Positions 37,721 to 39,225 of a stretch of 64,000 nucleotides of DNA are shown here, piece after piece. The notes under the pieces were generated by a model. The model was not told the DNA's origin. It made no database searches and was given only the letters and a program-made list of their open reading frames with translations. This DNA comes from Chondrosia reniformis (Eukaryota; Porifera; Demospongiae; Chondrillida; Chondrillidae): assembly GCA_947172415.1 (NCBI GenBank), contig OX359202.1:6062899-6126898 (forward strand), in the 5' to 3' direction. Both the position numbers and the translations under genes were made by a program. Position 1 is the stretch's first letter, and every line of letters begins with the position of its first letter.

Positions 37721-39225
37721 CTAATATGGTTCTGCATGTATTGTTTGAAATATACACTTCTTCAAAAAAATTAAATTATTCTGTTTGGGGGACGGTGGAT
37801 TTACTCCCATTCCAGTGAGACCAAAGAAAGATTGTGGTTTAGTATAAGAATATTCAGCTTTGAAATGCCATCCCACATGTTGAGTACATTCCTCACCATA
37901 GCAGTATGCAATAGCCCATTTATACCTAAGAAATTGAAGACAAAAGTATTACTGTCACAATGGTAAAGCTAGCGCACAATTTATACCTCAAACTGTGAAA
38001 TTAATTTTTAGGATCACTGCAGATGGTATTATATAATTGAAAATGAATTACTATTTTGATTCATATGATACATATACAGCTAGCGCTTGGATATTTCTTG
38101 TATTCATTACCCATCAAACCATGTCTCTTCTGCTGTGAAATTGCCAGTGATCTTTATCCCTTGAACATTTTTTACTGTGTGGACTAGATGGACATAATTT
38201 TGTGGATTGGTTCGTGAGTGCTTCCAAGCTTTTCCGTTTACAGAAATGGCATCATCTCCAGTAGCAATCAGAGAACCACATCCTTTACAACGGAATTCCT
38301 AAGTATATTTAGAGAAATAATACAGTAGCTATACATATATTGGAGGATAGTGACAGTAGACTTGGTAACCCACATCTTTCCAATCCAAACGGTATGGATC
38401 ATTACTACTGGAGGCTCTATATAGACCTGGATCATTACTAGTGGAGGTTCTATCCAAATATAGACCTGTATACATCGGAAATACATATAGAGCTATGTAC
38501 CTGGGCGGACGGCCTGGTAGCCTTAAGTGGCGATGGTTTATACGTGTCCAGGTATAGCCCTGTGCCCCTTAACCACTTTTGGTTTGCTTTTTATACATTC
38601 ATTGTAAGCATGGGCACTCTAATAATAATAATAATAATAATAATAATAATAATAATAATAATAATAATAATAATAATAATAATAATAATAATAATAATAA
38701 TAATAATAATAATAATAATAATAATATAGATGTATAATATATAAGCCGGACAAACTTGACTGAGTCATTTTACGAGTTGTTACCTTCCAGATCAGTTTGT
38801 AAACAGTTTACACTTGATGCTCTACTCACAGGTCGGCTACAGCAATTCTTGAAATCTTAGAAAAAAATTGATGATACCTTATTTCTAATGAAAGGTAGCT
38901 ATGTACAAATTAAATTACCGGCTCCAAATTTTTCTTCTATACGACGTACGAGTTCTTGGTGACTATCGTTAGTATTGTCGGCTCTCAAGGCATCACAAAA
39001 AAGTTGTATCTTTCTCAGGTGTGGATCTCGATCAAGCAGCTCGTACATCTTGGCGTTTGCATCTTTCGAATTACGCTGAATGTCATCTAAATCAACAGTG
39101 GATATTGCACCAAGGCTTCGGAATTTAGTCGCAATCCCCTTTAAATAGCAGTATTCATGTATATAATCATAATTTTCTGCGAGGAAATTTCTGATTTTCT
39201 CCGGTAATTGGGAAGCTGAAGCCAT
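37721..39225 (-). CDS. CARD-like plus cereblon CULT domain protein
   Basis: Four exons join in phase: 39225-38919, 38854-38829, 38298-38111, 37925-37721, giving 241 residues. Residues about 1-100 look like a CARD/death-fold helical bundle, with a MYELLDRDP block, the typical FCDALRADNTNDSHQELV end and no transmembrane segment. Exons 3-4 form a CULT domain, the thalidomide-binding fold of cereblon: FRCKGCGSLIATGDD (first zinc Cys pair), NPQNYVH, ETWFDGYKWAIAYC, CTQHVGWHF and SFFGLTG. All three tryptophans of the ligand cage are present. The second Cys pair is Cys-x4-Cys rather than CxxC. There is no Lon domain, so it is not cereblon. The start is the ATG at 39225. It is 430 bp from APC1, head-to-head. 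CULT is the firm part; CARD versus another death fold is less sure. The fusion is inferred from splice phase. Confidence 0.72.
38515..38730 (+). repeat. Retroposon tail fragment with (AAT)n microsatellite
   Basis: The block GTGTCCAGGTATAGCCCTGTG, CCCCTTAACCA and GCATGGGCACTCTAATAATA ends in about 36 AAT units (38617-38724). The same block occurs reversed at 54355-54470. The CACTCTAATAATA end also matches the 3' end of the LINE at 36308. It is probably a SINE or LINE tail sharing that 3' end. It lies in an intron of the CARD-CULT gene. Confidence 0.75.

What the first reader, a model, noticed from the sequence alone, without database searches (positions are those of the whole stretch)
37721..39225. 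A CARD-like death fold joined to a cereblon-type CULT domain
Seen: four exons in consistent phase (307, 26, 188 and 205 bp) join a helical N-terminus ending FCDALRADNTNDSHQELV to a CULT domain with the full tryptophan cage (ETWFDGYKW, VGWHF) and SFFGLTG. Known: CULT is the thalidomide-binding fold of cereblon, also found alone in secreted and bacterial proteins, and belongs to the beta-tent folds, which also include the RNA-sensing end of RIG-I-like receptors. CARDs nucleate innate immune assemblies. I know of no described CARD-CULT protein. Inference: this could be a small-molecule or degron sensor wired to a CARD signalling platform, with an overall plan like a minimal RIG-I-type receptor. 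The Cys-x4-Cys second zinc pair also differs from cereblon.
Basis: partly seen in the sequence, partly recalled or inferred. Interest (0 to 1): 0.88.

Follow-up and report, generated by a model that had tools for sequence, protein, structure and literature searches.

The report
Sponge CARD-like domain beside CULT domain
A sponge gene appears to join a CARD-like immune-signalling domain to the kind of drug-binding pocket known from cereblon; both pieces are real, but the splice that would join them has not been shown.

Summary
Both halves are real; their join is not shown. The C-terminal half is a CULT domain (E 3.5e-18 to a bacterial CULT, about 4e-14 to human cereblon). It keeps the three cage tryptophans and an intron at the same place and phase as the sponge's own cereblon gene. 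The N-terminal exon belongs to a family with at least 150 copies in this genome, taken as Chondrosia reniformis. The family is CARD-like: the six best PDB matches of its profile are CARD8 and BCL10 CARDs, though only at E 0.01-0.27. Copies lie upstream of RIG-I-like receptor ORFs. For one gene: exon 1 keeps the family's phase-1 donor. Against: a separate CULT gene is possible, Pfam sees no CARD in the window's own domain, and its single-sequence fold shows no death fold. I put the fusion at about 0.65. RNA-seq would settle it.

The parts
38919..39225 (-). Exon 1, 102 codons plus one base: CARD-like domain, ATG at 39225, phase-1 donor at 38918
38830..38855 (-). Candidate linker exon A (26 nt, corrected by one base): DFKNCCSRP
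   Evidence: second best of 51 candidates, not established
38374..38465 (-). Candidate linker exon B (92 nt), best-scoring; its donor could also end a first exon of a separate CULT gene starting at ATG 38475
   Evidence: not established
38111..38298 (-). Exon 3: first part of CULT (first zinc Cys pair to WFDG); must be entered in phase 0
37721..37925 (-). Exon 4: rest of CULT (YKW, CYGEEC, HVGWHF, FFGLTG) and C-terminus, TAG
37926..38110 (-). Intron in the Gly codon of WFDG|Y, phase 2, same place as in the own cereblon gene on C7
39289..39295 (-). TATA-like TATAAAT upstream of the exon 1 ATG (such motifs are common by chance)
   Evidence: TATAAA rate
37460..37465 (-). AATAAA downstream of the CULT stop; no AATAAA or ATTAAA between exon 1 and exon 3
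   Evidence: absence expected by chance half the time

Best explanation
One gene of Chondrosia reniformis encodes a small two-domain protein. Its N-terminus is a CARD-like exon module of a large shuffled family; its C-terminus is a CULT domain related to those of cereblon and of bacterial CULT proteins. Shown: the CULT homology, the family profile's likeness to CARDs, the family's phase-1 donor on exon 1, and the cereblon-type intron inside CULT. Inferred: that a short linker exon joins them. Inferred mechanism: the tryptophan cage of CULT captures a small cyclic ligand or a modified protein end, for example a C-terminal cyclic imide or a uracil-like ring. Binding exposes or clusters the CARD-like domain, which then seeds or joins an assembly with proteins that carry the same module, among them RIG-I-like and ankyrin-GTPase proteins. 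No ubiquitin-ligase role is expected, because the cereblon part that binds DDB1 (recalled to lie outside CULT) is absent. I give the fused gene about 0.65 and this mechanism, given the gene, about 0.4.
For: CULT: E 3.5e-18 (9gjq) and about 4e-14 (human cereblon); 46 of the 49 listed PDB sequences are cereblon or bacterial cereblon-like chains. 24 columns are invariant among window, own cereblon, bacterial and human CULT, with the three Trp and four Cys. CARD-like: top 6 of 9 PDB profile matches are CARDs, E 0.01-0.27; Pfam CARD in 4 of 23 members, best E 0.0037, Death in none at E<=1; among 2705 ORFs of held loci the first four hits outside the family are three CARD ORFs and one Death ORF. Context: 4 of 7 RIG-I C-terminal-domain places have a family exon 3.4-5.6 kb upstream on the same strand; one such ORF has DEAD 1e-27 and RIG-I_C-RD 3.8e-23. 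Join: phase-1 donor; 620-base gap, same strand, no other coding exon recognised in it.
Against: No transcript was seen. The linker exon is ambiguous and chance often gives as good. Two TATAAA motifs lie in the gap at 38595 and 38542, and ATG 38475 could start a separate CULT gene. Pfam finds no CARD in the window's own domain, and one RLR copy alone finds no CARD in PDB. The CARD matches of the family profile are weak taken singly. The single-sequence model (pLDDT 67) matches no death fold. The His378 and His353 equivalents are Glu and Gln. No second species was available.
Confidence: 0.55

Rival explanations
1. Two neighbouring genes. Exon 1 belongs to a CARD-like protein that either stops six codons after the domain or splices to something unrecognised; CULT has its own first exon, for example ATG 38475 to 38374, and works alone as a single-domain CULT protein.
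For: The ATG 38475 first exon ends in phase 0 with a positive donor score (1.74). TATAAA motifs at 38595 and 38542. Several family copies end in a stop soon after the domain. Animal CULT proteins without other domains are known (PMC4287342, section read).
Against: Exon 1 keeps the family's phase-1 donor (chance about 0.006). The best-scoring alternative first exon has no hydrophobic stretch, and the hydrophobic one at 38486 has a poor donor. No AATAAA or ATTAAA between the two, though that absence is expected half the time.
Confidence: 0.3
2. A fused gene in which the CARD-like domain is a brake: a short decoy that caps CARD assemblies of the RIG-I-like or other family proteins, with CULT serving as a structural or regulatory tag whose cage no longer binds imides.
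For: The protein has no effector or enzymatic domain; human His378 and His353 are replaced by Glu and Gln; small CARD-only regulators are known in vertebrates (recalled).
Against: All three cage Trp and the Asn351 and Trp380 equivalents are kept, and position 378 also differs in the own cereblon (Asn) and in one bacterial CULT (Glu, L086), so the change need not abolish binding.
Confidence: 0.2
3. The N-terminal exon is a helical domain that is not a death fold, and the CARD likeness of the family profile is chance.
For: Single-sequence model and fold searches show no death fold; no Pfam CARD in the window's own domain; PDB profile matches are weak.
Against: Six of six best PDB profile matches are CARDs; the first non-family hits among 2705 ORFs are death-fold ORFs; the module lies next to RIG-I-like and Death exons.
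Confidence: 0.1

Closest known systems
CULT domain family (cereblon C-terminus, secreted animal CULT, bacterial CULT)
   Same: Homology over the whole domain, three cage Trp, two Cys pairs, and the intron in WF(D/P)G|Y of the own cereblon gene
   Different: No LON domain; second Cys pair is Cx4C; His378 and His353 equivalents are Glu and Gln; a CARD-like exon upstream. The architectures listed in PMC4287342 (sections read) have no death-fold partner
RIG-I-like receptors of the same genome (C9)
   Different: No helicase, no RIG-I C-terminal domain; trees do not make the window CARD a sister of the RLR CARDs
CARD proteins (CARD8, BCL10, Pfam CARD)
   Same: The family profile finds CARD8 and BCL10 CARDs first in PDB
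   Different: Divergent: the window's own domain has no Pfam CARD match. Two text searches found no paper with both terms of a CARD-CULT protein
Bacterial single-domain CULT proteins
   Same: 26-37% identity of the best segment in 22 loci; closest solved relative is bacterial
   Different: 19 of 22 have at most 66 open residues before the match; in the other three (L069, L070, L088) Pfam sees nothing upstream at E<=0.1. The window gene has a eukaryotic intron shared with cereblon

Membership tests
CULT domain | Significant sequence similarity over the domain | tested here: met
   E 3.5e-18 to 9gjq, about 4e-14 to human cereblon
CULT domain | Three tryptophans of the ligand cage | tested here: met
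   W61, W67, W83 of the aligned fragment are invariant in A2
CULT domain | Two cysteine pairs that can hold zinc | tested here: met
   CKGC and CYGEEC align with both pairs; the second spacing is x4, not the x2 of PMC4287342
CULT domain | Binding of thalidomide, uridine or cyclic imide | not testable with these tools
   His378 and His353 equivalents differ
CARD | Profile similarity of the domain family to known CARDs | tested here: met
   Top 6 of 9 PDB matches are CARDs, E 0.01-0.27; Pfam CARD in 4 of 23 members; first non-family ORFs hit are death-fold
CARD | Pfam CARD match of the window's own domain | tested here: not met
   0 families at E<=1 for the window row; hence called CARD-like, not filed as a Pfam CARD
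CARD | Six-helix death fold | tested here: inconclusive
   Single-sequence model, pLDDT 67, five helices; no death fold listed in searches with it
CARD | Homotypic assembly | not testable with these tools
   Needs protein
RIG-I-like receptor | DExD/H helicase core | tested here: not met
   Only Yippee-Mis18 found in the 241-aa model
RIG-I-like receptor | RIG-I C-terminal domain | tested here: not met
   No PF11648 place in the window and none in the protein
Cereblon | LON domain before CULT | tested here: not met
   None in the 241-aa model. The own cereblon-like gene is on C7: its CULT groups with human cereblon (94/97), and a nearby upstream ORF has a weak LON match, E 0.001, below the cut-off
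Secreted animal CULT protein | Signal peptide directly before CULT | tested here: inconclusive
   Best-scoring alternative first exon is not hydrophobic; a hydrophobic one at 38486 has a poor donor

The most novel reading that the evidence does not exclude
A sensor in which a cereblon-type aromatic-cage CULT domain takes the place of the RNA-sensing C-terminal domain of RIG-I-like receptors and drives a CARD-like assembly: an innate immune receptor for a small cyclic ligand, damaged protein ends or a symbiont metabolite, in a sponge described as having high microbial abundance.
Probability: 0.25. Interest if true: 0.85.

Novelty: new variant of a known kind. Interest (0 to 1): 0.6.

Why it matters
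What CULT domains bind in nature, and what they do outside cereblon, are open questions. A CULT domain joined to a CARD-like domain would suggest that the pocket which thalidomide occupies has also served as an immune sensor and not only as a degradation adaptor, and it would offer a small two-domain protein on which to test that. Apart from the join, the family shows a CARD-like module spread as an exon beside RIG-I-like, ankyrin-GTPase and Death-domain genes of one sponge.

Tried and rejected
Direct splice of exon 1 to exon 3: out of frame. Recent bacterial transfer of CULT: not supported, because the intron in the Gly codon of WF(D/P)G|Y is shared with the own cereblon gene; against this, the closest solved relative is bacterial and the 26-row CULT tree leaves the window row unplaced on a long branch.

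The window CARD as sister of the RLR copies or of the C3 group: a tree of 47 rows and one of 44 rows leave it unplaced. AU tests reject none (p 0.166 for RLR, 0.111 for C3, 0.332 for C3 plus C7), and none is shown.

Other CULT places in the genome: of six matches at E<=1 two are this gene, two are the C7 gene, and the two on C1 and C2 (E 0.125 and 0.698) look spurious by eye.

Full report
What is there. Exon 2 is off by one: the GT-AG unit is 38855-38830, so the linker is DFKNCCSRP; the protein still has 241 aa.

Where it is. The window is G000:C14:6062899-6126898 of a genome of 117,379,552 bases. Contig C7 has 8,459,200 bases, the scaffold N50 printed for Chondrosia reniformis odChoReni1.1, 117.37 Mb, GCA_947172415.1 (PMC12181767, passages). 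I take the species as that sponge; the paper also names an RNA-seq run and an Ensembl annotation, which I could not open.

The CULT half. phmmer against PDB lists 49 sequences at E<=10. The first 46 are cereblon or bacterial 'cereblon isoform 4' chains, E 3.5e-18 to 9.8e-13, over residues 112-227; the other three are unrelated, E 0.19-0.35. Pfam gives only Yippee-Mis18, E 4e-4, below its cut-off. Aligned with the own cereblon, a bacterial and the human CULT, identity is 34, 40 and 34%, and 24 columns are invariant, with three Trp and four Cys. The equivalents of human His378 and His353 are Glu and Gln; Asn351 and Trp380 are kept. PMC11480361 (passages) says that a ligand's glutarimide bonds to His378 and Trp380 and that Asn351 bonds to the same ligand. 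The own cereblon-like gene lies on C7. Its CULT groups with human cereblon (94/97), and a nearby upstream ORF has a weak LON match (E 0.001, below the cut-off). Its CULT exons are split in the Gly codon before Tyr, phase 2, as here. With 22 bacterial CULT loci (43 candidate stretches, 22 confirmed) the window row is unplaced.

The CARD-like half. Exon 1 has 150 matches at E<=0.001 in the genome, 150 of 254 candidates being scored, so this is a lower bound. By my reading of the lists none of these places overlaps the 43 Pfam CARD places at E<=0.01. 142 Death places were listed at E<=0.001, with 150 of 220 candidates scored. A profile of 23 members finds nine PDB sequences at E<=10: first four CARD8 and two BCL10 entries, E 0.01-0.27, then three unrelated. 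Members singly against Pfam at E<=1: CARD in 4 of 23, best 0.0037; Death in none; 20 other families in one or two members each; none for the window row. The profile was run over 2705 ORFs of held G000 loci and the window. After the family come L015 (CARD, 3.3e-4), L047 (CARD_2, 0.0086), L046 (CARD and CARD_2, 0.10) and L016:614-925 (Death, just under the Pfam cut-off, 0.11). One held Pfam CARD exon (L016:1465-1809) and two held Death exons were not hit. Four loci had been fetched for their CARD matches, so this test is not blind. The single-sequence model is poor (pLDDT 67, pTM 0.54) and shows no death fold in searches. I call the domain CARD-like.

Its family context. Seven places match the RIG-I C-terminal domain. 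Four of them, all on C9, have a family exon 3.4 to 5.6 kb upstream on the same strand; for the other three none was listed. The C9 ORF read in full has DEAD 1e-27 and RIG-I_C-RD 3.8e-23; that the CARD-like exon is spliced to it is inferred from position. In one open frame with a family copy: ankyrin repeats with a weak GTPase match (L027), an AIG1-type GTPase (L042) and a Roc-type match below its cut-off (L031). Death exons lie about 1.2 kb upstream of three C3 copies. PMC8998645 (passages) reports Death at the N-terminus of the two Amphimedon RLRs. PMC12909245 (passages) reports 39 CARD and 128 DEATH genes in the sponge Dysidea avara.

The join. Exon 1 ends in a phase-1 donor. Of 43 family copies examined (44 given, one without the anchor; many near-duplicates), 22 have a positively scoring phase-1 donor at 37 or 40 nt from the conserved His/Asn; others have a stop or a weak donor there. 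The window's is at 43. The chance of one this good in three phase-1 positions is about 0.006. Exon 3 must be entered in phase 0, since a stop precedes it in frame, so a linker exon or a separate first exon is needed. A separate CULT gene from ATG 38475 is possible. Weighing these, I give one gene about 0.65; that weight is judgement, not a computed number.

Mechanism and novelty. CULT cages bind glutarimides, and uracil and uridine were found to bind bacterial CULT (PMC4287342, sections read). Cereblon recognises C-terminal cyclic imides (PMC11974815, start of abstract in a listing). CARDs work by homotypic assembly (established knowledge). The simplest reading is ligand-controlled CARD assembly; every functional step is inference. 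PMC4287342 lists CULT architectures without a death-fold partner. Searches for 'CULT domain' with 'caspase recruitment domain', and for 'cereblon' with 'CARD domain', 'fusion' and 'invertebrate', found no paper; only open-licence papers are in that library, so absence in print is not shown beyond it. High microbial abundance of this sponge is from the abstract of PMC12181767.

Noticed in passing
L024, L025, L026 (C9:4750001-4760000 and 4776001-4796000): A cluster of RIG-I-like receptor ORFs: six C-terminal-domain places on C9 and one on C12, against two RLR genes reported for Amphimedon, with CARD-like rather than Death exons upstream of four.
   Followed up: partly
L029 and C3:6.64-6.72 Mb: Death-domain exons about 1.2 kb upstream of CARD-like exons on the same strand in three repeated units, as in Death-CARD adaptors, with a TRAF-type gene beside one.
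   Followed up: partly
L042:2335-4140: CARD-like domain in one open frame with an AIG1-type GTPase.
   Followed up: no
window 31774-36212 (+): Matches to PHD finger, endonuclease and reverse transcriptase in successive ORFs, as in a non-LTR retroelement, 1.5 kb from the CULT stop.
   Followed up: partly
window 38620-38726: A perfect 107-base TAA repeat in the gap between the CARD-like and CULT exons.
   Followed up: no
window 3839-3914 (+): tRNA-SeC predicted by ARAGORN with bacterial settings, anticodon tca.
   Followed up: no
window 18291-18734 (+): Core histone ORF, H3-like by its start (H3 by eye).
   Followed up: no
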